This document shows positions 1 through 31,769 of a DNA stretch of 31,769 nt, in pieces. Source of the DNA: a virus. The notes beneath the pieces were generated by a model. It was not told where the DNA came from. It worked only from the letters and a program-made list of their open reading frames with translations, and did no database searches. The stretch spans positions 1 to 31,769 of IMG/VR virus record IMGVR_UViG_3300030099_004565. One strand, 5' to 3'. Numbering within the stretch: the stretch's first letter is position 1; each line of letters starts with the position of its first letter. Position numbers and translations under genes: made by a program.

Positions 1-100
1 CTTCTAGCAAGTGGGAAAAGGATAAGACTAGTAAGTATGTTGTCGCTGGTGTGTACCTGTCAGCTCATAAGCAAGCGGGCTATGGTTTGAACCTGTGCCC
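1..100. repeat. terminal direct repeat, left copy (contig closes on itself)
   Basis: These bases reappear at 31670-31769. Positions 3-100 are identical to 31672-31769; position 2 is t where 31671 is g. The repeat lies inside one open reading frame that reads through from the right end to the left end without a shift, so it most simply reflects assembly of a circular or circularly permuted molecule rather than a biological long terminal repeat. Confidence 0.95.
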
Positions 101-8050: not shown

Positions 8051-11000
8051 TTATTTCTTCCTTTCTCGAGTGAGTTCATTAAAGATTTTTTGTATACGAA
8101 ATTCATTTCGCTTGATTAATTCTCGTTCATCAACTGAACGTAGACTTGTTTCTGCTCCCAACAAATACAACAAAACATTTGGTGATGCAAATCTACGCAG
8201 CTGTTGTTTGCGTAAACTTTCATCATCCTGGTCTTTAGCCATTAATGCTTTTGTATAATCTTTAGGTATTCTGTTAACACCCATCAATAATGTAGCTACT
8301 GAAAATGCTGCATATTTTCGAGCACCACTTTTGGTCATCTTATATTGTTGTTGTTGGTCAAATTCATTTGAAAACGTTGGGTCTTGTGGTCGTCTACGTT
8401 TTGGATCAATAGGTGATAGTTCAAAAAGCTCTTTGTAAAATGGCCACATTGCTGTGCCTTTTAAAAGATAAATGTCTTCTGGTGGTACTTTTTTACTGTA
8501 TCTATCCTGCACAACCTGTAATAAAAACTCAAACTCAGGTCGTAAATTTATACCACCTATTAATTTTTCTACAGCAACAGCTGTGGACGGTTCACCAATA
8601 CCCAACAGTCCTATTGTTCTTGTTCCTAACATTAATAAAGTTTCGTAACTTTCAACATACGGATTGCTAAATCCATATGTAAATAAAGGCAAGTTATCAA
8701 TCATACCTTTGTAAAAACTATACATTCGGCTTTTGGCTCTATCATCATTATACAACCAAGCTGCACTTTGTTGTTGTTGTCTCATCGATGCACGAGCAAC
8801 TTTTGCAACAAAGTTATGTCCCAGGTTTTGAGTAACTGCCTTGGCTGTTAGGTTAATTAACTCTGTTGTTATCTGTCTAGTAAAGCTCCAAAAGAAAACA
8901 TATTTTTCAAACAATGATCGTTCTTGTCTACCAATAGATCCATAATCCAACAAGCTACGTTTCGATATTGCAATGGCTTGTTCCAACGGTACATCATCTT
9001 GCAACGCTGTATAAAATGTAGCTCGTCTAAATGTTTGATCTTGATTGTCAGCCAACGTAGACCACAAGCCTCGTTGGTCTGGTCGTATCTTACTCCATAG
9101 CCAACTAGGAGTAGTCAATGGTTTACCTGATAAATCACGCCCAACATCAGTCATTGTTCTTGTTGCTGTACGTTCCTGGAGCTCTACTTTAAATCTACTT
9201 AATCCTAGATTGTATGTGCTTTCCAATTGACGTAGCTCAGCAGCAGTGTATTCTCTTCCACCTTTACTGGTAAATACAACAGCATCATCTGGGTATTTAG
9301 ATATTGCGATTGCTTTCATGTGCATTGGACTAGCTAATCCACCACGAAATGAACGTTCTGGACCCAAAGTACCAGCCATAATTATGTTGGCATTAAATAT
9401 ATTTTGTCCCAGGTATCTGGTAACTGGTACATAAATACCAGCCAGCAATCCACCAGTAGCAATACGTCTAAAAGCCTCTGTTGCAGAGCCAATTGTAGCA
9501 CCAATTAAAGCAAGTTTATCATCATCTTTAATACGCAATCGTTCTAAAGTTGTTCTCAGTTTTGTTGTTTTGGCTAGTGTTTCTAAATTATCAATAGTCT
9601 TTGCCATACCAGCACCATACATCATTGCTATATTTGTGCCTTGTATTTTAGTAAACATAGGTAGATTGCTATTTAAAGCACTGACTATATCATCACCAAC
9701 AGCAACACCATTAGCTTTAAAAAAGTCCTCTGTATTTCGTAAGACATCTTCCATCACACCCATTCCTGGATCTGCATAATACCTGCCATCAACAGGAAAA
9801 CCTTTAAAATATATATCCCATATTTTTTCTTTAACATCATTAACAATATTATTGCGTACATTTTGAGGTATACCCATTTCAGCTATTGGTTGAAATATAC
9901 GATCAAATAAATCATCAACAGTATTATTTACTGCTATGTATGGTTCTGCTAGTATTTGTTGTAATTGATCTCTTGCTGTTGTTAGGTCAGGTTTTAAAGT
10001 TCTTTGTCCTATATTTTGACCACCCCAAACACCTTGTACCCATTTTCGTAAATCATCACGAGTTTTAGTACCTATCTTTGACATTGTATTAAAATGTACA
10101 TCAGCTAATAAACTACCTGCATTTTGACGCTTTGCTTGTGCTGCAAACAATCCAGCTGGATCTCCTTCTTTACCACCAAATGCAGCTTGCGCAAACTCAT
10201 CTACAGCATCATCAATAATGTTGTCATAAACATTGGTTAATGGTTGTAGATTTAACTGCAAATCAGACCCTAAATAGTTTGGTATCATATCAACACCATA
10301 TTCAGGATTGGTTTGTATAAATGCTTTCATTTCATCGTTAACCACTTGTGATTGTCGTATACCTAAAATGTATTCCTGGATTGGTAAGCTCGTTGCTTCC
10401 TTACGATTTATGCCAGCCAACCCTACTGTCTTTAATCCTGTACCTTTAAAAAGTGGTTCTTGTTCTATTCGATTTATAACTTCTAAAAAGTTTGAATAGT
10501 TTATATCCAAAACAGTTGAACCTCTAGAAGCAAAAACTTCCAATCGTCGATCAGCTTCAGATACACCATACAGTTTCCGAATAAACTCAGTGTGAAATGG
10601 ATTTTCATCTATAGCAATTTTAACATAATCACTACCATAATAAGTAGACAACAAAGCTTTCCATTGATCTGATTTATTAAAATATAATCTGTATTCATAA
10701 ATTAAATCTTTTAATTCATCATCTGTAACATTTTTCATACCACCATATTCACGATCAATTAAACTTTTTATTTGATCTCGATATCGTTTTTCAACAAATG
10801 TATTTAAATATGCTTCCCAATCACCCTGGAAACCTCTTTCAACCAGCTCATCTGTAATACGTATCGTTTCTGCTTCAGTTACTTTCCAAGCTGTTTCAGT
10901 CATTTCATCCAAAGCATCTATTGGATTACCATATTCTTTTGATAATCGTTTTAACTCTGTATCAAATTGATCACTAACTTGATCTATTTTTGCCTCTACT

Positions 11001-13657
11001 CGTCGAGTTAAATTTAAAAACTGTGGAGGAGGAGTAACACCAACAACTGGTTTTATTGTTGGAGATGCAGACTGCTGTGCTTTAATAGCTTGTCGACTAA
11101 CTCTGATGTCTCTTATAAAATCTCCCATTGCTCCTTTTTTTAATTGCTTGGCAAACTCTCGTTCTTCACTAACAGCTAATATATCACCACGGAATTCACC
11201 TTGTGCTGCTCGACGGAACTGTTCTCCTCCTGCTCTCATCCGAAACCCATCTAAATGTTTTTCAGCACTGCGAGCAATAAATGCTTCCTGGATTATTTGA
11301 TGATACTTTTGATCGTATGTTCCAAACTGCAATTGAGATATTAAATCTTGATACACTTCAGACTTTCGTACTGTATCTACACCTGCATAATCAATAATGT
11401 GATCTAAGATTTCATTTACAACTTTCTTCTTCTCTTCATTTGATCCAGTTATATTCCACTTTTTATCAGATGGATCGTATTTTAAATTTGCATTCTTACC
11501 TTTTAAATCATTGTAAAACGCATTGTGTTTTTTTGCTTTTGTCCAGGACTTTCTTGGAACAACAACATCAGCACCAATAGCAATCAAATCTTCTGGTAAA
11601 AAGTTTAATAGATTATCAGCTACATCTCGACGTACATCTTTTTTAAATGCCTCATAAATGACATCCAAATCTTGATACGAATATACATCACCAACTATAT
11701 CTTCCAATGCTTTTTGCAGTTGTTGTCGGCCACTCTTTGTACCTGTTCGCAATGTATCAAATACTTGATTGTATAAATTTTTATCAGTAGCAAGAGACTT
11801 AGCCAATGCTGTTCGTACCAACTCTGACTGAAACTGAGTAGTTAATCGAGTAGTATTTAACTTTGGTACTTCTTCAAACCCATATGCCTTCTCTAGCATT
11901 TCACTGGTTTGTTTTTGTATTGCCTCACCTTTATTGTATATTCGAGCAAAATCACTATTGCCCCTTGCAGCATTTTCTAATTTTTTTGCTTCTCGAATTA
12001 AAATGTCATCCAATAAATCCTTAGTAACAACAGCAGCTGGGTCGTCTATTTTTATACCAGCCTCAAGAAGAATACCTTTTGTTGTTGGATTTTCAAGCAT
12101 AAACCCAAGGTTCTTTACAGCAATGTCTTGATTATCAACAATAGATCGTAGCATATTTACAGCAACAACTCGTTCTGCTACAGCTTCAGATGAGTTTTCT
12201 CGTATGGATCTGCGAGCTGCTGAACTATCAATCCAATCATTCCAACTTATTTTACCACTGTAAAATTCATCTTTTATTGCTGCTGATGTACCTTCTCCCA
12301 GGTAATCATCTACAACAGACATTAAACCTTTCATTTTGGTATATTCAATTGGAGCTGTTACTGCTGCTACTACTTCTCCTGTTCGTGGGCCAACTGCTCT
12401 TGCTGTTGCTCTTGCTGCTGCTGCTGTTGGTTTGTAAACAAATTTATATGCAGTAGGTATACCTGTTATTGGTACACCTATTTCTGACCCAAAACCAAAC
12501 ATCCACGCTGCATCTTCTCTGTCTCCAGTTACAAACTCAGCAACACCACCAATAGGTGTATTAGACAACGTTGTTTTTAAATATACATTGGCATCAAATA
12601 GTTGTGGTAGTCCTTGTCCCTTGGCTATATTTACCAGTATTTGATCTGCAACATCTGCACTGTCAGCCATACGATAATCATCAGTTTCAATCGTACCTGG
12701 CATCAATGGTTGTATTGCTGATGATATAACAGCAGGAGCTAAATTTAAACCACCACGCATAGTAGCTGCTAATGGAGTTTCATACACTACACCTGTCTCA
12801 GGTCTAGGTTTAACCAAAGCAAGTTGTGCTGCTCTACCTACATCTGATGCAATATCTTCTCTAAGTTCACCTGCTCTAATGTCAGCTTCAACCATAAATC
12901 TAGGTTTGGTCGTTCCAGGAGTAAGTATATACGATGGACTTTTAGCTCTTTCTTCACGAGCTTCTTTTCGTCTTTGTTCTCGTATTCTTTGTTCTAATAA
13001 TAGATTGGCTTGTTGTAATGTATAATCCTCAGACTTTCCTACAATCTGTCTTTTAAATGCTTCAGCAGCTAACTCAGGGTATGACCCCTCTCGTATTTCT
13101 CCTGTCTCTCTATCACGCAACAATCCTTTTTCGATGTCAACAATATTGCTTTCCATAAATTGAGGAGCATCATAAAACTCAGAAGTCGTTCCCTTCATAT
13201 ATTTATCAGCATCAGCACGAGCTTTTCGTTTTGCTTCTTCAGGACTGTTGCCATACGTTATCTGATACACTTGTTCCATTGTATTAATGTATTTATTACG
13301 AGCAGACAATGGATCTGCTTTTTCACCAAACCTATATGGCATGATACGTTCAACACGAGGAGCAACAACTTCTTCTCGATCTCTCATTAAACTAATTGCT
13401 GGTGCAGTTAGTTCTTCTGGCTCTTCTATTTCAACTGGTTCTTCTGGTCTACGCAAAGCACCGATCATTTCAGACATTGGCTTTTCCAGCTCAATCTCTA
13501 CATCTTCAACTTCTATTTCTACAGGCTCACCTAAATTTTGCTTTTGATTAATTACATCAATAGATTGACGATACTGTGTATAATCAATTGTTTTATTACG
13601 ATATGCTTCTCGTAATTGTTTTTTAGCTTCATCATAATCTAGAGTTGTAGTAGCCAT
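8051..13657 (-). CDS. giant internal virion / DNA-ejection protein (1868 aa)
   Basis: This is the largest gene of the window. The N terminus holds a short charged helix and an acidic Glu-Pro region (residues about 45-85); long charged helical stretches follow to about residue 1380. Near residues 1395-1425 is a hydrophobic part (GGLLAGIYVPVTRYLGQN). Residues about 1560-1610 contain LLDYGSIGRQERSLFEKY and FFWSFTRQITTELI, blocks I associate with very large structural proteins of podoviruses. No lytic transglycosylase or peptidase motif is evident. Its place after the 343- and 422-residue proteins mirrors T7 genes 14-15-16, so I infer a gp16-like role in carrying DNA across the envelope. A polyvalent protein injected into the host is the main alternative. 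Confidence 0.62.
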   Translation of the reverse strand: MATTTLDYDEAKKQLREAYRNKTIDYTQYRQSIDVINQKQNLGEPVEIEVEDVEIELEKPMSEMIGALRRPEEPVEIEEPEELTAPAISLMRDREEVVAPRVERIMPYRFGEKADPLSARNKYINTMEQVYQITYGNSPEEAKRKARADADKYMKGTTSEFYDAPQFMESNIVDIEKGLLRDRETGEIREGSYPELAAEAFKRQIVGKSEDYTLQQANLLLEQRIREQRRKEAREERAKSPSYILTPGTTKPRFMVEADIRAGELREDIASDVGRAAQLALVKPRPETGVVYETPLAATMRGGLNLAPAVISSAIQPLMPGTIETDDYRMADSADVADQILVNIAKGQGLPQLFDANVYLKTTLSNTPIGGVAEFVTGDREDAAWMFGFGSEIGVPITGIPTAYKFVYKPTAAAARATARAVGPRTGEVVAAVTAPIEYTKMKGLMSVVDDYLGEGTSAAIKDEFYSGKISWNDWIDSSAARRSIRENSSEAVAERVVAVNMLRSIVDNQDIAVKNLGFMLENPTTKGILLEAGIKIDDPAAVVTKDLLDDILIREAKKLENAARGNSDFARIYNKGEAIQKQTSEMLEKAYGFEEVPKLNTTRLTTQFQSELVRTALAKSLATDKNLYNQVFDTLRTGTKSGRQQLQKALEDIVGDVYSYQDLDVIYEAFKKDVRRDVADNLLNFLPEDLIAIGADVVVPRKSWTKAKKHNAFYNDLKGKNANLKYDPSDKKWNITGSNEEKKKVVNEILDHIIDYAGVDTVRKSEVYQDLISQLQFGTYDQKYHQIIQEAFIARSAEKHLDGFRMRAGGEQFRRAAQGEFRGDILAVSEEREFAKQLKKGAMGDFIRDIRVSRQAIKAQQSASPTIKPVVGVTPPPQFLNLTRRVEAKIDQVSDQFDTELKRLSKEYGNPIDALDEMTETAWKVTEAETIRITDELVERGFQGDWEAYLNTFVEKRYRDQIKSLIDREYGGMKNVTDDELKDLIYEYRLYFNKSDQWKALLSTYYGSDYVKIAIDENPFHTEFIRKLYGVSEADRRLEVFASRGSTVLDINYSNFLEVINRIEQEPLFKGTGLKTVGLAGINRKEATSLPIQEYILGIRQSQVVNDEMKAFIQTNPEYGVDMIPNYLGSDLQLNLQPLTNVYDNIIDDAVDEFAQAAFGGKEGDPAGLFAAQAKRQNAGSLLADVHFNTMSKIGTKTRDDLRKWVQGVWGGQNIGQRTLKPDLTTARDQLQQILAEPYIAVNNTVDDLFDRIFQPIAEMGIPQNVRNNIVNDVKEKIWDIYFKGFPVDGRYYADPGMGVMEDVLRNTEDFFKANGVAVGDDIVSALNSNLPMFTKIQGTNIAMMYGAGMAKTIDNLETLAKTTKLRTTLERLRIKDDDKLALIGATIGSATEAFRRIATGGLLAGIYVPVTRYLGQNIFNANIIMAGTLGPERSFRGGLASPMHMKAIAISKYPDDAVVFTSKGGREYTAAELRQLESTYNLGLSRFKVELQERTATRTMTDVGRDLSGKPLTTPSWLWSKIRPDQRGLWSTLADNQDQTFRRATFYTALQDDVPLEQAIAISKRSLLDYGSIGRQERSLFEKYVFFWSFTRQITTELINLTAKAVTQNLGHNFVAKVARASMRQQQQSAAWLYNDDRAKSRMYSFYKGMIDNLPLFTYGFSNPYVESYETLLMLGTRTIGLLGIGEPSTAVAVEKLIGGINLRPEFEFLLQVVQDRYSKKVPPEDIYLLKGTAMWPFYKELFELSPIDPKRRRPQDPTFSNEFDQQQQYKMTKSGARKYAAFSVATLLMGVNRIPKDYTKALMAKDQDDESLRKQQLRRFASPNVLLYLLGAETSLRSVDERELIKRNEFRIQKIFNELTRERKK

Positions 13658-25017: not shown

Positions 25018-26688
25018 TTATGGGAGAAACTGTTGAATGTCTTGTGGCGATGGTTGACCCTGCATACCAGCAGATGTTTGCTGTTGTTCTTGTGCTGCTG
25101 CTGCTTGTTGTTGTTGAGGATTTTCCGATGCTCCTTCTATTGCAGAAATAAAAGTTTGTGGTAAATCCAACAAGCGAATTAAATGAGACAACACTTCAGC
25201 TGGAGGAGTACCTAGCTCCAATAGGGTAGGCATTACAGTTAAGAACTCTTGTTTCTTGACCGCCTCACTAACTGGTGTCGCTCCAGTATCATTAGCATAA
25301 TAAGTAAAGTCACCAGTAATGTCCTTTGATTTTATGACAGTAGGTTCGCCATCAATCAGGATAACATCACCATCATCCTGGATGTACAACCGTATCATTG
25401 AAATGTATATTTCTGCAATGTATTCGATAGCACTGTCTCTTTCTCTGGCAAGTCTACCAATCTCAGAAGAAGAATATGCAGCAAGTGCAGTAATCTCTGT
25501 TGCGGTTGCCCGTGAGGATTCTCCTCTAGTAAACGGAGCAAGTACCGAACCGCGTTCGAAATCATCTTGCACTTGTTGCACATAACGTTCTAGCTCCGCA
25601 GGCACAGGTGTATGAGGCACAGACATAATACTATTTCCAAGCTGTTGTCCCTGACTAAGCTCAACTTCAATAAACTCTCCATCAACCCCTTGTGATAGTT
25701 TGCTCATTGCTTCAGCATCAAAAACACCAGCCTCCACCACCCATTGACGAGCTGACCTACGCACCATCGAGGCCTGATAAGTGCGTAGGATATTCAACTC
25801 TTGTACTTGATCATACACTCGTCGAAGCGCAGAATAGCCTCGCATTGGAAGGTCTGGCTGTCTGCTAAAGAACAATGGAATGATAGGACTAATTGGATTG
25901 TCCGTAGCATCCCGAAACGGAATAGCAGAGTATTTCACTTCTCTGATATTGTCTTCCTCTCCCTCCGGCAGAACAATACCATCGTAAAGAAACTTCTCAC
26001 CATTCCTATAGTCTGGTGACCAGACATACAGTTTATCATTTACAAGATCATAAAACTCTAAAATTTCCACATATTGAAACTCTGGTTCTGTGTCTTCAAA
26101 TGTTTTATTATTGTATCCATCATCACCATTAACTCTATCTAAAAATCGAATTAATGAATGAGCACTAAACTTTTTTGGACCATATTTATCTCTGGCCTCT
26201 TTTAATGTCAGATGATACCGATGGCCAACAAACTTTTGATCAGACCAAGCAGCTGCATCCTCATCAACAATTACATCCCAGGGTGGAATGGCGCAAACGG
26301 AAACTCTTTTAAAAGGATCTTTGTGGTCATTGGGTAACAACTTTAAAAATGCACAAGGGTTAATTAGTGCGAGCCTACTGGCATCTTCAAGCTGTGACCG
26401 TATACCATCCAAAAAATTATTACACAAGGCTTGTACAATTTGTGGATTGCCATTACCTCTAACATCACCTTTTACCACTACTGATGGGCTACGTGCAAAC
26501 AATGAGGCAATGTATCCTTCTATAAATTCATAAGCTCTACTGGTTTCAATTACTACCTGTTGTGGAGCTTCTAATTTATTCCAGTACCGTGTCATATATG
26601 CTGATCGGAGTTGTCGTAGTTCTGGGCGTTGTTCGTCCCAATACTTTTCGTGATTGGCATAATAGGCTGCAATGGTAATCGGCTTCAT
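25018..26688 (-). CDS. portal protein
   Basis: The 556-residue protein lies directly after the large terminase. Blocks that fit a podoviral portal are the N-terminal helix (YYANHEKYWDEQRPELRQLR), a Trp/Asp-rich clip-wing region (CAIPPWDVIVDEDAAAWSDQ), ATEITALAAYSSSEIGRL in the stem helices near residue 400, and a Gln/Ala-rich C-terminal tail (QQQQAAAAQEQQQTSAGMQ). It would form the dodecameric ring through which DNA is packaged and leave the head. I chose ATG 26688 because it overlaps the terminase stop (ATGA); an in-frame GTG at 26703 is possible. Confidence 0.85.
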   Translation of the reverse strand: MKPITIAAYYANHEKYWDEQRPELRQLRSAYMTRYWNKLEAPQQVVIETSRAYEFIEGYIASLFARSPSVVVKGDVRGNGNPQIVQALCNNFLDGIRSQLEDASRLALINPCAFLKLLPNDHKDPFKRVSVCAIPPWDVIVDEDAAAWSDQKFVGHRYHLTLKEARDKYGPKKFSAHSLIRFLDRVNGDDGYNNKTFEDTEPEFQYVEILEFYDLVNDKLYVWSPDYRNGEKFLYDGIVLPEGEEDNIREVKYSAIPFRDATDNPISPIIPLFFSRQPDLPMRGYSALRRVYDQVQELNILRTYQASMVRRSARQWVVEAGVFDAEAMSKLSQGVDGEFIEVELSQGQQLGNSIMSVPHTPVPAELERYVQQVQDDFERGSVLAPFTRGESSRATATEITALAAYSSSEIGRLARERDSAIEYIAEIYISMIRLYIQDDGDVILIDGEPTVIKSKDITGDFTYYANDTGATPVSEAVKKQEFLTVMPTLLELGTPPAEVLSHLIRLLDLPQTFISAIEGASENPQQQQAAAAQEQQQTSAGMQGQPSPQDIQQFLP

Positions 26689-28205
26689 ACGTTCTTCTTC
26701 CACGGTATTGGTTGTTGTTTTATCTTCTTGGCTCTTGTTTCTGATATTAGCATATCCATTAAGTTTCGTCGAACCAACTTCAATTTTCGTCTAGGTATAT
26801 CTCTTAAACAACGATACGCCAATGCAATACTCATTGCAAGGTCATCGTGCATTCCTGTAGGTGCTTCCGGGGTAACTTTTAATACAACCAAACATCGGAG
26901 CTCGGCCAACACTTGTGCATCCATTTTCATAATCATACCCTCTGTAATGTACTCTCTTAGGGTTTCATAAGCATCCAGTTTGCTTTTGGTTGTTGTAGTC
27001 CAGTCTTTACCATCTACTGTACACCACAAGTTCTTGTATCCAAAGTGGCGCAAACGATACAATACAACGTGACCGTGATTGTTACTTTCACAGAGTACAC
27101 GGGCATCATTAAACCATTGTGCTATATCCATTACTTTGTCAGCAAATGCAGATGGACTTATTGTATTACTGCGGTAATGAAATACAGGCTGCAATGTTGC
27201 CATAGAAATAACAGATATAGCAGAATAATCCCTACCAACACCAGCAGCAACATCAACACCCATCGCATATACATCATCATCCCTGGGATCTTCATACAAT
27301 CGTTCCTCTCCATTAAAGTGTATCTCTTCAATGTCTCGTATATCATCCAAACTAAAGTATGCAGCAGAGGCATAATGAAACGCATCATCCAAACAACCAG
27401 GATACTCCCGGCGAAACTTTTCTAGACCAAGAGTAGCTATCTGATTGCGTCTCCAATAAAGCTGGTCAAAGTCTAGATTGTATTGCTTAATAAGCCATTG
27501 TTCTTCTTCGCTTGGTTCAAAGTCTTTGGGTGCTTCTTGTTTGTACTTCTGGTGTTCCCACCACCAATAAGTTACCAAGTGCCAACCATTTTCAGGAGCA
27601 CCCATAATCAAACGATGAAAAGTATCTGCTGGTTGGTCCGGAGTACTTTCAATAATAATCTGTCCAGTACCAACAGTAGCTACAATCTGTGCCAGCATTT
27701 CTTGTGGGTCATCATAGAAAGCAAACTCAGACAAGTGTACACTACTAAGCATAAACGATCGTGTACCACCCTTTGAACCAGCAGTAAAAGAAGACAACTC
27801 AGAGCCACTGTCAGCAAACGACATCGTTGTAGCATTATCAATAGACAGCTTACGTTGCAGTATTAATGGCAAGCTGTCATGCATTAGCTTGTCCATACGA
27901 CGTAGGTTCTTTGCTGAACGCTGGTGAAAACTAATTACACCAAACTTTAACGGGTCTTTTGTTGTATATGTTTGCCACAAAGCATAGGCTCTTAGTAATG
28001 TAGAGATACCAATCTGCCGAGGTTTGAGAATAATTATCTTTTGGTGTTGTTGTAGTTTTTTTATAAGTTCTTCTTGTTCACTATTCGGACTGAACCTGAC
28101 CAGTTTACCACTATATTTATCCTGTATTTTCAACAACTTAACAAACTTCAGTGGATCTTGTAATACCTTATTCAATTCTTCCTGGACATCATCAGGTAAC
28201 TTCAT
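26685..28205 (-). CDS. terminase large subunit (ATPase and nuclease)
   Basis: The 506-residue protein carries a deviant Walker A (KPRQIGIST, about 61-69), a Walker B-like block (VHLSEFAFYDD, about 156-166), a coupling motif (IIIESTP near 184-190), and an RNase-H-like nuclease with Asp318 in GVDVAAGVGRDYSA, Glu373 in CESNNHG and the Asp pair 454-455 in GMHDDLAMS. It powers DNA translocation and cuts concatemers. I prefer ATG 28205, six bases after GAGG; the in-frame TTG codons upstream are less likely. It overlaps the resolvase gene by 14 bp. The pairing with RusA and the circular map suggest headful cutting. Confidence 0.95.
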   Translation of the reverse strand: MKLPDDVQEELNKVLQDPLKFVKLLKIQDKYSGKLVRFSPNSEQEELIKKLQQHQKIIILKPRQIGISTLLRAYALWQTYTTKDPLKFGVISFHQRSAKNLRRMDKLMHDSLPLILQRKLSIDNATTMSFADSGSELSSFTAGSKGGTRSFMLSSVHLSEFAFYDDPQEMLAQIVATVGTGQIIIESTPDQPADTFHRLIMGAPENGWHLVTYWWWEHQKYKQEAPKDFEPSEEEQWLIKQYNLDFDQLYWRRNQIATLGLEKFRREYPGCLDDAFHYASAAYFSLDDIRDIEEIHFNGEERLYEDPRDDDVYAMGVDVAAGVGRDYSAISVISMATLQPVFHYRSNTISPSAFADKVMDIAQWFNDARVLCESNNHGHVVLYRLRHFGYKNLWCTVDGKDWTTTTKSKLDAYETLREYITEGMIMKMDAQVLAELRCLVVLKVTPEAPTGMHDDLAMSIALAYRCLRDIPRRKLKLVRRNLMDMLISETRAKKIKQQPIPWKKNV

Positions 28206-28566
28206 CAACAACCTCTATTTCCAAAATGAATGACCATTCACTTTTTACATACTTCTTCGATGCAACCAGCATTTCTATTTGAGCATCATCTTCATACACA
28301 ATCTTATTGAGTGCATCACACACAGAAGCAAAACAATTTTGTAAATCACGTCTTCGTCGATCACCAAATACTACATCAAGTGACAGCTTGACTGGTTTAT
28401 CTGTTATTACCCATCCTTGTTCTCGAACAGCAGCAGCAGCAGTCCAAGCCAACCACTTCTCAAAGTCTTTTACATCTTTGAGTTTGTATACCTGGTTACC
28501 ACGAACACGCATCATATTCTTTTTCATTGGGATTTTACGGTCACCCTTAATAATCAAACTACTCAT
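28192..28566 (-). CDS. rusA: RusA-family Holliday-junction resolvase, variant active site
   Basis: The protein is about 124 residues from ATG 28566, close to RusA length (about 120). The family core is clear: GDRRRRDLQNCFASVCDALN, then VYEDDAQIE and ASKKY. In E. coli RusA, from memory, Asp70, Asp72, Lys76 and Asp91 serve catalysis in 'RDLDN..K ... DD'. Here the first Asp and the DD pair remain, but the second Asp is Gln (RDLQN) and the Lys position reads Ala. It may resolve or trim branched replication intermediates before packaging, which its overlap with the terminase gene supports, or its activity may be reduced. Two upstream in-frame ATGs would extend it into the previous gene. Confidence 0.82.
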   Translation of the reverse strand: MSSLIIKGDRKIPMKKNMMRVRGNQVYKLKDVKDFEKWLAWTAAAAVREQGWVITDKPVKLSLDVVFGDRRRRDLQNCFASVCDALNKIVYEDDAQIEMLVASKKYVKSEWSFILEIEVVDEVT

Positions 28567-28894
28567 ACTTCTCATATTTCTCAAAAGCTTCATCTTCTAA
28601 AAACTGCTGATACAATCGATACCCTGTTCTAATACTCATTAATATACTATGGATCATAAATCGCTCCTGCAACAACTCTTTTAATCGAGCATCATCTCCA
28701 TCGTATGCCCAGCTGGGTACACCATCAATGTATACAAAATCTCCTTCTGTCCAAATGTCAATCTCATACTGTGACCCATACAAAACAATACCAGCTTCAC
28801 AACGCTGTAATGCGTTCTTGTATAGCTCCAATGATGTTTTAAAAATCACAGCTAACATTTCATCTTTCTCAAACATTTGAGTTCGTATACTCAT
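28559..28894 (-). CDS. unknown 111-aa protein
   Basis: I do not recognise it. It is acidic, helical at both ends, and has a central part (YGSQYEIDIWTEGDFVYIDG) that looks like beta strands. The start at ATG 28894 overlaps the previous stop (ATGA) just after AGGAG; an earlier in-frame start is less likely. It lies between the second regulator and the resolvase in an unbroken string of overlapping genes, so it is an early-to-middle gene of the leftward unit. Confidence 0.62.
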   Translation of the reverse strand: MSIRTQMFEKDEMLAVIFKTSLELYKNALQRCEAGIVLYGSQYEIDIWTEGDFVYIDGVPSWAYDGDDARLKELLQERFMIHSILMSIRTGYRLYQQFLEDEAFEKYEKYE

Positions 28895-29136
28895 TCTCCT
28901 ACCCCATAGCAATACCGACCAACATACAACAAAACACGCTCTTCTGATTTGCCTGTCTCTTCTGCCAATACCTTAATCGTTTTCATTAAAATCTTTGTCG
29001 ACACTTCTCGATCTTTATTCTTGTAATCTAAAAAAGCACTGTGAGAACAACCAACCTTTTTGGCCAGCCAGTTTACACTACGCTCACACTTCTCCAGTTC
29101 ATCATACACCCAATCACCAAATCTAATCTTCGTCAT
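28891..29136 (-). CDS. Cro/CI-type helix-turn-helix regulator 2 (81 aa)
   Basis: The start ATG 29136 follows GGAGAGG. A helix-turn-helix of the XRE family fits residues about 18-45 (ERSVNWLAKKVGCSHSAFLD), with a following helix (TKILMKTIKVLAEETGKSEE). The protein is a single DNA-binding domain, like Cro, with no cleavable C-terminal domain. It overlaps the upstream regulator gene by 14 bp. It is a candidate for binding the dyad at the three main promoters, together with or against its neighbour. Confidence 0.72.
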   Translation of the reverse strand: MTKIRFGDWVYDELEKCERSVNWLAKKVGCSHSAFLDYKNKDREVSTKILMKTIKVLAEETGKSEERVLLYVGRYCYGVGE

Positions 29137-29383
29137 ACATCCTCTCCAAAGCATATCGATACGCAGGTATACTACTCAACGCATCCTCAAACATTTCTAA
29201 CAATTCCATACCAGCTTCTTTGGCCAATACCTCACACGCCACCACCATCAAATCAATACCAACCGTTTGGCCCTTCTCCCAACGATTAATAGAACCATCA
29301 GATATACCACTCGCAAAATAAAACCAAGCTTGATTTACACCAAGCAAATGCAACCAACTACGTACCCATTGACCAAAGTTCAT
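29123..29383 (-). CDS. Cro/CI-type helix-turn-helix regulator 1 (86 aa)
   Basis: The XRE-type fold is seen in residues about 14-60: VNQAWFYFASGISDGSINRW followed by EKGQTVGIDLMVVACEVLAK. The recognition helix is in SDGSINRWEKG, the classic 'GvS.gsI.rWEkG' form. It is one domain, too short for a lambda CI-type protein. The start overlaps the previous stop (TAATG) with a weak ribosome site. Together with the next gene it makes a tandem regulator pair at the beginning of the late-type unit. Confidence 0.78.
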   Translation of the reverse strand: MNFGQWVRSWLHLLGVNQAWFYFASGISDGSINRWEKGQTVGIDLMVVACEVLAKEAGMELLEMFEDALSSIPAYRYALERMYDED

Positions 29384-29685
29384 TATAAACCATAGTAATA
29401 GGCTAAAATTTCAACCTCAACATGACCGTGCCATTCGTTCTTTTTCGAACCACCTATAGCCCATTCACTATCATAAAAAAATTCTACAATCTTATAATCG
29501 CATACTGAGACAACAACCTCAATACCAGCATCTATAAACCCTTCACAAATAAGATTTTCTAAATATTCGGTAGAAAGAGTTTTTTCAAAAAGAGAACGCG
29601 CTTCTTCTTTTCCAATAGATTTATCAATTGAAAAATCAATAACAACCATTAATTTCTTTTCTTCATACATACTGTGTAAGATCAT
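29383..29685 (-). CDS. unknown 100-aa protein
   Basis: I do not recognise it. It is acidic, with FSIDKSIGKEEARSLFEKTL as a helical N-terminal part and a beta-rich C-terminal half (AGIEVVVSVCDYKIVEFFYD, HVEVEILAYYYG). It starts with an ATGA overlap with the gene before it and a GGTG ribosome site, and runs into the first regulator by one base. It is part of the early string of small genes behind the leftward promoter. Confidence 0.6.
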   Translation of the reverse strand: MILHSMYEEKKLMVVIDFSIDKSIGKEEARSLFEKTLSTEYLENLICEGFIDAGIEVVVSVCDYKIVEFFYDSEWAIGGSKKNEWHGHVEVEILAYYYGL

Positions 29686-30032
29686 ACTACACCAGTATAA
29701 AAACTAATCGATTGAACCAACGACAAATGATACGTATGAAATGTTTGAGTATTTATCTTCCAGGAGCTTTTCTTCTTGCGCTTCTCTGGCCACATTATGG
29801 CACGGCTACCTGCTGAGTTGTGAGGATCTGAATAAGCTAACTTCTTCGTTATATGAACCAATATTAAACCTAGGTCTATTGTTGTTGTTGTTGGAAGTTC
29901 TATACCTTCAAAACTAAAATCATCTACATACGTTTTGTCATAACAATAAATATGATGATCTCTACCAAACCGACCACACAAATACTCCAGTTCCTCACTG
30001 TACATTCGCACTAACTTTTCACTACTCATCAT
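29682..30032 (-). CDS. unknown 116-aa protein
   Basis: Start ATG 30032 is preferred: GGAG lies four bases upstream and the ATG overlaps the previous stop (ATGA). Starts further upstream would run about 50 bp into the preceding gene. The sequence has a helical N terminus (LVRMYSEELEYLCGRF), a middle block (LPTTTTIDLGLILVHITKKL) and a basic patch (PEKRKKKSSWK). No family is recognised. Confidence 0.6.
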   Translation of the reverse strand: MMSSEKLVRMYSEELEYLCGRFGRDHHIYCYDKTYVDDFSFEGIELPTTTTIDLGLILVHITKKLAYSDPHNSAGSRAIMWPEKRKKKSSWKINTQTFHTYHLSLVQSISFYTGVV

Positions 30033-30325
30033 TTTCTCCATAACTTTAGCTGTACACTTTTTGGCAAAAACTTCTTCCACGTTTCTTTTCTTTTTACTTC
30101 TTCTCTGCTTTTAAAACCTAAACACACTGGTTTATTATTTATCAACTGTATCTCCTGGGGATACCCCTCTTCAGACGTGTCATAACACATCATATGCAAC
30201 AACAATAGACAACCACCCTTACTCGGATTGAGCGGCTGCTTTGTACAATGAGCACACCATTTTTCCTCAAACCATATACCTTCTGAACCTGAACCTGGTC
30301 TGTATAATGTTATCTTTTTATTCAT
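30029..30325 (-). CDS. Cys-rich putative zinc-binding protein, first gene of the leftward unit (98 aa)
   Basis: Four main cysteines are spaced as C24-x2-C27 (WCAHC), C39 (GGCLLL) and C68 (KPVC), with a further Cys at 47. The sequence between (YPQEIQLINNKPVC) recalls small Cys-rich phage proteins with the form 'W-x-C-x2-C ... G-C-x-I ... YP-x-E-x ... P-x-C'; function unknown. It has a strong AAGGAG ribosome site six bases before the ATG and is the first gene after promoter P3, whose transcript would have a leader of only about a dozen bases. Confidence 0.72.
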   Translation of the reverse strand: MNKKITLYRPGSGSEGIWFEEKWCAHCTKQPLNPSKGGCLLLLHMMCYDTSEEGYPQEIQLINNKPVCLGFKSREEVKRKETWKKFLPKSVQLKLWRK

Positions 30326-30342
30326 ATCTTACTCCTTGTCTA

Positions 30343-30371
30343 AACATAAACAATAACTGTCTATATGTCAA
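30343..30371 (-). promoter_or_regulatory. promoter P3 of the leftward unit with operator-like half-sites
   Basis: On the minus strand the -35 is TTGACA (30371-30366), the spacer 17 bp and the -10 TATGTT (30348-30343). The half-site TAGACA/TGTCTA occurs inside the spacer (30358-30363) and again right after the -10 (30337-30342), 21 bp apart. The 9-mer CTGTCTATA (30357-30365, + strand) is also present at promoter P1. The gene starts at 30325. Confidence 0.68.
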
Positions 30372-30510
30372 CAATAGAATAAAAGAATATACAAAACTAC
30401 AACTCCTGTATTCCTCTATACCCTACACTTAGAGCACTCTTTATACACATACACAACATTGTGTGGCCTCTAAAAAATTACCGCCAAATTTCTAGGGCGT
30501 ACTATGATAA

Positions 30511-30632
30511 GGGTTATATTACCGATCTTGGGGGGGGCCTATCTAGTAAATCATATTGAATAGGGTTCTCACTGAAAAGAGTACCTACAATAATCCCCGC
30601 TGGGTGGGAAGAAGACGCGGGGCTATATTACC
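30511..30632 (+). repeat. 13-bp direct repeat pair in the noncoding region
   Basis: GGGTTATATTACC at 30511-30523 and GGGCTATATTACC at 30620-30632 differ at one base and lie 109 bp apart. The second copy begins in the right arm of the hairpin CCCCGC/GCGGGG (30595-30600 with 30617-30622). They may be iteron-like protein-binding sites. Confidence 0.6.
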
Positions 30633-30835
30633 TAGCGAAAAAATTTCCCTGTTGAGGTCGGGGTGTTGGGGTCAAGGTTGGGATTTGTTGAGGTGTCCAG
30701 CTGGGCATGTGTACTGAAATTGATAGATGGTTTTGTGTGTTGCGCAATGTGTGATTAGGCTACAAATAAAATTAGTATTTTTTGATCTGTTGTTGTGGTC
30801 GGTTTGTCGGGTGTTATAGGTTTTCCAGGTATGTC

Positions 30836-30870
30836 TGTCTATAGACAACTGGTCTATATATTGTTATGAT
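30836..30870 (+). promoter_or_regulatory. promoter P1 of the rightward unit with palindromic operator
   Basis: The -35 is TAGACA (30842-30847), the spacer 17 bp and the -10 TATGAT (30865-30870). The -35 is the right half of the perfect 12-bp palindrome TGTCTATAGACA (30836-30847). A further TCTATA lies in the spacer. The same geometry is found at P2. A repressor bound at the palindrome would block polymerase directly. Confidence 0.7.
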
Positions 30871-30930: not shown

Positions 30931-31086
30931 ATGACTTTGTTATCTTTTGTTAGAGCGGTTGCTTTGACAGTTATGGAGCGATATGAAGATATCGCTTTCT
31001 CTCTTGCTTTCATCTGTGCTAGCCTTTGGTTAGTTCGTTGCGTTTGTGGCGCTGTATATACTCTTCATGTCGGGGGTGTATTATGA
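30931..31086 (+). CDS. small membrane protein, first gene of the rightward unit (51 aa)
   Basis: The start ATG 30931 follows AAGGGG by six bases; an upstream in-frame GTG (30877) would sit at the expected transcript start and is rejected. One membrane helix is seen (IAFSLAFICASLWLVRCVCG, residues about 20-39), with a short charged N-terminal part (MERYEDI). As the first gene behind P1 it is expected early. A role at the host membrane is likely; the exact function is unknown. It overlaps the next gene (ATGA). Confidence 0.62.
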   Translation: MTLLSFVRAVALTVMERYEDIAFSLAFICASLWLVRCVCGAVYTLHVGGVL

Positions 31087-31373
31087 GTATCGTTTGTTCT
31101 CCAGCTGGAGGTCTTACTATGAGGTTTCCTTGTTGCTCTGTTTGTGCGTCTTTCCTCGTTGGTGATTATCCTGTCCTTTCTGAAGACCTTGATCATGCGA
31201 TACATCTATCTCATTGTTTAGAGGACCTCGAAAGTGTATGGGGTGATATGGTATCGTTTGAGGTTGTTAGCTCTGTAACCGTTCTATCCATATTGCATGC
31301 AAAGTGTACACTTTGCAAAGAAGAATATCCTTCTGTTGTTGCTGTTGTAGATTTTAAAGGGGGTGCTCAATGA
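31083..31373 (+). CDS. Cys-rich zinc-finger-like protein (96 aa)
   Basis: Start ATG 31083 has GGGGGTG four bases upstream and overlaps the previous stop. Two cysteine knuckles stand out: CCSVC near residues 17-21 and CTLC (after KC) near residues 75-78, with His residues between (DHAIHLSHCLEDL). A treble-clef or C2H2-like zinc site is plausible. It ends FKGGAQ because the last codons contain the next gene's ribosome site. Function is not known. Confidence 0.65.
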   Translation: MSIVCSPAGGLTMRFPCCSVCASFLVGDYPVLSEDLDHAIHLSHCLEDLESVWGDMVSFEVVSSVTVLSILHAKCTLCKEEYPSVVAVVDFKGGAQ

Positions 31374-31582: not shown

Positions 31583-31769
31583 TGAGTATTCAAATGATTA
31601 AAGCAGACTACCCTAGTTACTTGCACTGTATGACGCTTCCTAGTGGTCATCAGTTGTCTATTCTTTCAACGTCTAGCAAGTGGGAAAAGGATAAGACTAG
31701 TAAGTATGTTGTCGCTGGTGTGTACCTGTCAGCTCATAAGCAAGCGGGCTATGGTTTGAACCTGTGCCC
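31582..31769 (+). CDS. gp88/DUF7227-like phage protein, 5' part (continues at window start)
   Basis: ATG 31582 opens the frame MSIQMIKADYPSYLHC, which runs to the last base and continues in frame at position 3 of the window. GGGGGTG lies four bases upstream, and the ATG shares one base with the previous stop (TGATG). An ATG three bases earlier is possible but would be too near the ribosome site. The N-terminal part here contains SKYVVAGVYLSAHKQAGYGL leading into the Cys cluster. The rest of the gene is described in the entry at the window start. Confidence 0.8.
   Translation, partial: MSIQMIKADYPSYLHCMTLPSGHQLSILSTSSKWEKDKTSKYVVAGVYLSAHKQAGYGLNLC
31670..31769. repeat. terminal direct repeat, right copy
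   Basis: This matches 1-100 with one mismatch (g at 31671, t at position 2). The mismatch is at the third position of a Thr codon (ACG or ACT), so both versions encode the same protein. Confidence 0.95.

What the first reader, a model, noticed from the sequence alone, without database searches (positions are those of the whole stretch)
28891..29383. Two overlapping Cro/CI-type regulators at the head of a virion operon, with no integrase
Seen: two single-domain helix-turn-helix genes overlap and are transcribed in the same direction as terminase, portal and capsid genes. In lambdoid phages opposing repressors are usually divergent. No integrase, recombinase, partition gene or long repressor is visible. 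Inference: the pair may be a timing device for a lytic phage (early repression of both units, then release), or the control part of an episomal, non-integrating lysogen.
Basis: partly seen in the sequence, partly recalled or inferred. Interest (0 to 1): 0.62.

Follow-up and report, generated by a model that had tools for sequence, protein, structure and literature searches.

The report
Phage Cro-like repressor and its operators
Two small, distantly related DNA-binding proteins sit in one operon of an uncultured phage without integrase; one of them very likely shuts off both of the phage's diverging main promoters through a matching palindrome that I found at each, which makes it an ordinary kind of phage regulator with an unusually clear, testable target.

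Summary
The two genes are real and both encode single-domain XRE/Cro-fold proteins (models with pLDDT 91 and 95). They are homologous to each other. Their overlap is 14 nt (the start of the downstream gene, HTH1, is 29136), ordinary for this operon. The record closes on itself (98-bp identical ends), so the absence of an integrase, serine recombinase and ParA is meaningful; related records lack them too. The pair is not a conserved unit: relatives carry HTH1 alone, HTH2 alone or neither, in a variable slot between a conserved small gene and RusA-terminase. New here: a palindrome TGTCT-N6-RGACA occurs, exactly matched, at one place in the window and otherwise only in the three HTH1-carrying genomes among 112 loci. 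Each carrier has one copy on the early side of the divergent control region and one (1 mismatch) over the -10 of the TTGACA promoter that drives its own operon. None of 8 HTH1-less relatives has either. HTH1 is therefore most likely an autoregulating Cro/Aca-like brake on both divergent units. HTH2's target is unknown; a 33-fold enriched CCAGCTGG palindrome tracks HTH2 genomes but is unexplained.

The parts
28891..29136 (-). HTH1: 81-aa XRE/Cro-fold protein, predicted repressor
   Evidence: Model pLDDT 91.2; PDB 2ef8 C.EcoT38IS TM 0.72/0.71; orthologues L002, L003, L017 with identical HSAFLDY segment in helix 3; start set by GGAGAGG Shine-Dalgarno
29123..29383 (-). HTH2: 86-aa XRE/Cro-fold protein, accessory paralogue of HTH1
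   Evidence: Model pLDDT 95.0; PDB profile hit 3bs3 E=7e-4; relatives L015, L016, L018; homologous to HTH1
30337..30352 (-). Proximal operator O1, TGTTTATGTTTAGACA (1 mismatch to TGTCT-N6-AGACA), over the -10
   Evidence: Same register in all four HTH1 carriers, absent from 8 HTH1-less relatives
30343..30371 (-). Sigma-70-like promoter of the virion-side operon, TTGACA-17-TATGTT
   Evidence: TTGACA-17-(-10) at the same place in L002, L003, L017
30832..30847 (.). Distal operator O2, TGTCTGTCTATAGACA, exact
   Evidence: Only exact place in the window, 0.16 matches expected; counterparts L002:3-18, L003:559-574, L017:326-341
30842..30870 (+). Possible promoter of the divergent early operon, TAGACA-17-TATGAT with TG, -35 inside O2
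   Evidence: 10 of 12 matches; weak on its own (14 found, 12.2 expected)
30029..30325 (-). First small gene of the virion-side operon, unknown function
   Evidence: ORF; weak PHROG match of unknown function
29682..30080 (-). Small gene conserved upstream of RusA/TerL in most relatives; marks the start of the variable slot
   Evidence: 18 loci
29383..29685 (-). Small accessory gene of the variable slot
   Evidence: Homologues in L003 and L017
28559..28894 (-). Small accessory gene of the variable slot
   Evidence: Homologues in L003 and L017
28192..28593 (-). RusA-like Holliday junction resolvase
   Evidence: Pfam RusA E=3e-14
26685..28211 (-). Terminase large subunit
   Evidence: phrog_2 E=3e-37

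Best explanation
HTH1 is a small dimeric XRE/Cro-type repressor. It binds a palindrome, consensus TGTCT-N6-RGACA, at two places in the divergent control region: over the -10 of the promoter of its own (virion-side) operon, so that it limits its own expression, and on the far side, at the start of the early operon, where it would block early transcription. During infection both promoters would fire with host RNA polymerase, HTH1 would accumulate, and both units would then be turned down: a Cro/Aca-like brake, not a lysogeny switch. HTH2 is a diverged relative gained or lost in the same accessory slot; it is probably also DNA-binding, but its target is not identified. Shown: fold, homology, operator pattern and its co-occurrence with HTH1, lack of integrase. 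Inferred: DNA binding by HTH1, repression, timing.
For: Folds. The exact pattern occurs at one place in the window and otherwise only in the 3 HTH1-bearing genomes among 112 loci. With up to 1 mismatch, the N6 spacing gives at least two sites in 4 of 4 HTH1 carriers and none in 8 HTH1-less relatives. Unbiased search over 1024 half-sites and 13 spacings: this is the top motif (an offset form of the same sites ties on minimum count), with at least two sites in each of three control regions; 0 of 200 shuffled sets reach that. L003 and L017 keep the half-sites of the distal site while its spacer has changed. The proximal site lies in the same register over the -10 of a TTGACA-17 promoter in all four. 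The helix-3 segment HSAFLDY is identical in all four proteins. Half-site spacing fits an XRE dimer of the 434 type (own knowledge).
Against: HTH1 carriers form one terminase clade, so co-occurrence is not many independent events. The motif was first spotted by eye before the unbiased test. The proximal sites have one mismatch each. The early-side promoter is a weak prediction, and L002's contig ends at its distal site. No binding or expression data. Repression at the proximal site would also dampen genes downstream, unless the virion genes have other promoters.
Confidence: 0.66

Rival explanations
1. The HTH genes are Aca-like autorepressors only: they cap transcription of a short operon of early accessory (counter-defence) genes placed before the virion genes, and do not control the early replication unit.
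For: Small HTH gene inside an operon of small unknown genes next to virion genes, an inverted repeat within the core promoter, strong consensus promoter. Published Aca operons show one or two such repeats with IR1 always in the core promoter (PMC9410906).
Against: The best-conserved, exact palindrome is the distal one, far from the operon's own promoter. No match to a named Aca family in NCBIfam or by PDB profile search. No known anti-CRISPR in the operon. In L003 HTH1 is the first gene, not downstream of an acr.
Confidence: 0.2
2. The pair is the immunity/maintenance module of a non-integrating (episomal or carrier-state) temperate phage.
For: Two repressor-fold proteins, palindromes at both divergent promoters, no integrase; a dispersed palindrome CCAGCTGG recalls stoperators.
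Against: No ParA-type partition gene or serine resolvase, no long repressor, no relative of the capsid found in the genome collection, and most close relatives lack both genes, so the lifestyle cannot depend on them.
Confidence: 0.05
3. The HTH proteins are controller (C) proteins of a phage methyltransferase or restriction-modification cassette.
For: Best PDB match of HTH1 is C.EcoT38IS, also among the best for HTH2; in L003, L015, L016 and L017 an HTH gene lies upstream of a C5-cytosine methyltransferase in the same slot.
Against: The window and L002 carry HTH1 with no methyltransferase in the slot; L012 has the methyltransferase with neither HTH gene; the exact operator lies only at the divergent control region, not before the methyltransferase genes. 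The fold match is shared by many XRE families.
Confidence: 0.06

Closest known systems
Cro of lambdoid phages
   Same: Small single-domain XRE-fold protein without a cleavage domain; palindromic sites on both divergent promoters including its own; acts to turn down early transcription (inferred).
   Different: No opposing CI-type repressor, no integrase; encoded in the virion-side operon, not at the head of the early operon; no three-site operators found.
Anti-CRISPR-associated (Aca) autorepressors
   Same: Small HTH gene among small accessory genes next to virion genes; inverted repeat inside a strong core promoter of its own operon (PMC9410906).
   Different: Not in a known Aca family; no known acr; a second, better site on the divergent early side.
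Controller (C) proteins of restriction-modification systems (C.EcoT38IS, C.BclI, C.AhdI)
   Same: Among the best structural matches, similar length; an orphan C5 methyltransferase is a neighbour in some relatives.
   Different: Window has no restriction-modification pair here; operator and linkage do not follow the methyltransferase.
434 and P22 C2 repressor DNA-binding domains
   Same: Fold (TM about 0.5-0.7) and operator geometry (short half-sites about one helical turn apart; own knowledge).
   Different: Lack of the C-terminal oligomerisation and self-cleavage domain of the full repressors.

Membership tests
XRE/Cro/CI (HTH_3) superfamily | Four to five helix Cro/CI DNA-binding fold | tested here: met
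   Models pLDDT 91 and 95; Foldseek top hits are XRE proteins, prob 1.00
XRE/Cro/CI (HTH_3) superfamily | Curated Pfam HTH_3 cut-off reached | tested here: not met
   HTH2 15.4 bits against a cut-off of 23; HTH1 no HTH_3 hit; placement in the superfamily rests on fold, so I claim the fold, not the Pfam family
Cro-type phage repressor | Single domain, no cleavage domain | tested here: met
   81 and 86 aa, all within the fold
Cro-type phage repressor | Palindromic operators at divergent promoters including its own | tested here: met
   O1 and O2 in 4 of 4 HTH1 carriers; binding itself not tested; met for HTH1 only
Cro-type phage repressor | Partner CI-type repressor and integrase (temperate module) | tested here: not met
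   None in a closed 31.7-kb genome; hence 'works like Cro', not 'is a lambdoid Cro'
Anti-CRISPR-associated (Aca) | Sequence match to a named Aca family | tested here: not met
   NCBIfam and PDB profile searches gave none
Anti-CRISPR-associated (Aca) | Inverted repeat within the core promoter of its own operon | tested here: met
   O1 over the -10 in four genomes, with one mismatch each
Anti-CRISPR-associated (Aca) | Linked acr gene | tested here: inconclusive
   Small neighbours match no named family; acr proteins are often unrecognisable
Restriction-modification controller (C) protein | Linked restriction-modification genes | tested here: not met
   No methyltransferase or endonuclease of a restriction system in this slot of the window
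Episomal prophage maintenance module | Partition genes | tested here: not met
   ParA-type PF13614 absent from the window and 18 relatives; other partition types not searched

The most novel reading that the evidence does not exclude
HTH2 recognises the dispersed palindrome YCCAGCTGGR (9 sites in the window, 10 in the related 33-kb record that carries HTH2) and silences transcription genome-wide in the manner of mycobacteriophage stoperators, while HTH1 holds the two divergent promoters: a two-repressor system for a non-integrating carrier state.
Probability: 0.05. Interest if true: 0.65.

Novelty: new member of a known kind. Interest (0 to 1): 0.36.

Why it matters
It gives a regulator-operator pair, with coordinates and a consensus, for an uncultured phage lineage of about 31 kb that has no characterised close relative (best isolate capsid matches about 25% identity). 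That makes its transcription programme directly testable with two short DNA fragments and one 81-aa protein, and suggests that a Cro-like brake can sit in a lineage with no trace of a lysogeny module and be gained or lost as an accessory gene.

Tried and rejected
HTH1 and HTH2 searched singly against 50,697 phage records: no match for HTH1, one insignificant CI-like hit for HTH2. Single-sequence scan of viral contigs with HTH2 gave nothing; the two-sequence HTH1 alignment found only L002. AimR (arbitrium receptor) profile hits HTH1 at E=1.3e-4 but covers only its N-terminal HTH and scores 21 bits against a cut-off of 70: rejected. Shared inverted repeats for HTH2 carriers: only two weak candidates, within chance. 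Terminator-like and promoter-like scans over the window region are near chance as a whole, so I rely on the virion-side promoter only because all four relatives agree. Literature searches for Cro-like regulators in integrase-less lytic phages gave nothing closely relevant in the held library. A repeat finder failed because the strand was given as minus.

Full report
What is there. The window is a whole virus record of 31,769 bases. Bases 3-100 are identical to bases 31672-31769, and the GP88-like ORF runs across that junction, so the genome is effectively complete and closed. This matters because the finding rests on absences. One unit on the plus strand starts near 30.9 kb and continues through the junction to 3.5 kb (GP88-like protein, unknown proteins, a DNA methyltransferase). 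A long minus-strand unit runs from 30,325 down to 3.7 kb: small genes, HTH2, HTH1, a small gene, RusA, terminase, portal, capsid, tail, amidase, terminase small subunit.

The two genes. HTH2 is 29123-29383. HTH1 is listed as 28891-29154, but a GGAGAGG sequence stands before ATG 29136, none before ATG 29154, and the relatives' proteins align from about that point, so I take 29136; the overlap is then 14 nt. Sequence profiles are weak for both, but the structure models are confident (pLDDT 91 and 95) and all helical. Their best PDB matches are XRE proteins: C.EcoT38IS, ClgR, C.BclI, SinR, P22 C2, 434. Profile-profile comparison links HTH1 and HTH2 to each other with probability 94%. They are diverged relatives, not an unrelated CI/Cro pair.

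The pair is not a unit. Terminase and capsid alignments pulled about 100 related loci from viral contigs. In the terminase relatives whose upstream region is held, the stretch between a conserved small gene (29682-30080 in the window) and RusA/terminase is a variable slot. L002, L003 and L017 have HTH1 without HTH2. L015, L016 and L018 have HTH2 without HTH1. L004 to L010 and L012 have neither. Only the window has both. Other tenants include C5-cytosine methyltransferases (L003, L012, L015, L016, L017). In the terminase tree, HTH1 is confined to one clade, and HTH2 appears in the other clade and in the window. More distant single HTH genes of this family stand just before terminase in other phages (L103 to L112).

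Lifestyle. Tyrosine integrase is absent from the window and 29 related records (some of them fragments), serine recombinase and ParA from the window and 18 related records, while controls ring. A scan of 84,980 prokaryote species genomes with two capsid peptide patterns found no relative; this is a limited but fitting negative. There is no evidence for an integrated or partitioned state.

The operator. While comparing the control regions I saw repeated TTGTCT/AGACAA half-sites in the HTH1 carriers. I then tested this without choosing the motif. Over 1024 five-base half-sites and spacers of 0-12, TGTCT-N6-AGACA ranks first: with up to one mismatch it has at least two sites in each of the window, L002 and L003, and none in eight HTH1-less relatives; the runner-up, GTCTA-N4, is the same sites in offset form. 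None of 200 shuffled sets reached two sites in all three. The exact pattern TGTCT-N6-RGACA has one place in the window (30832-30847; 0.16 matches expected) and, among 112 loci, occurs only in L002 (and L099, the same contig), L003 and L017. L003 and L017 keep the half-sites of the distal palindrome while the spacer between them differs. The second site lies 27 to 43 nt before the first gene's start in all four carriers, and in all four the -10 hexamer begins at the last base of the left half-site: window TGTTTATGTTTAGACA, L002 TGTGTATCCTTAGACA, L003 TGACTATAATTAGACA, L017 TGACTATTCTTAGACA. Each has a perfect TTGACA 17 bases upstream of that -10. The distal site lies on the early side; in the window it overlaps the -35 of a possible plus-strand promoter. 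That promoter call is weak. L017 keeps part of a homologue of the window's early-side gene 31026-31373 beyond it, so the divergent arrangement is the same.

How it most likely works. HTH1 dimers bind both sites. Binding at the proximal site blocks the -10 and limits HTH1's own operon; binding at the distal site blocks the early unit. Because HTH1 is made from the operon it represses, the natural reading is a brake that follows a burst of expression from both promoters. That resembles Cro in function and Aca proteins in layout. Published Aca operons have one or two inverted repeats, the first always within the core promoter (PMC9410906). Binding, repression and timing are inferred.

Limits. HTH1 carriers are one clade, so the co-occurrence is not many independent events. 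The conservation of half-sites against diverged spacers and flanks is the stronger part. HTH2 has no convincing operator. The host is unknown.

Verdict. The regulatory inference is right in part, for HTH1. The paired device and the episomal lysogen are not supported. This is a new member of a known kind, with an unusually clear predicted target.

Noticed in passing
window 3887, 4944, 10152, 15015, 18574, 22064, 28709, 30697, 31101: The 8-bp palindrome CCAGCTGG occurs 9 times against 0.27 expected (33-fold; the most enriched palindromic 8-mer), also 10 times in record G004 and 3 in G005 (HTH2 carriers), but 0-1 times in G001-G003. Codon usage does not explain it (8 coding sites, 0.97 expected, 0 of 2000 shuffles). 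Contiguous half-sites do not suit an XRE dimer; unexplained.
   Followed up: partly
window 30460-30540: A non-coding element in the divergent control region (minus strand TAGTAC-CCCC-AAATT...GTAATTTTTTAGAGGCC) is recognisable in all close relatives aligned whether or not they carry the HTH genes; possibly a leader, origin or packaging signal.
   Followed up: no
window 26685-30325 and L002 to L018: The stretch before RusA/terminase is a cargo slot: HTH genes, C5-cytosine methyltransferases, a methyltransferase like the window's 2427-3011 gene (L005) and several unknown small genes replace each other between relatives.
   Followed up: partly
window 3-100 and 31672-31769: 98-bp identical ends although the record is not marked as having end repeats, probably because the first two bases differ; the record is effectively a closed genome.
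   Followed up: yes
L016 1-3200: This relative holds over-represented TAGAGTTA units (7 in the locus), some flanking long palindromes around CCAGCTGG such as GTACCCAGCTGGGTAC.
   Followed up: no
window 8051-13657: An 1868-aa ORF in the tail region matches no Pfam family; likely a large structural or injected virion protein.
   Followed up: no
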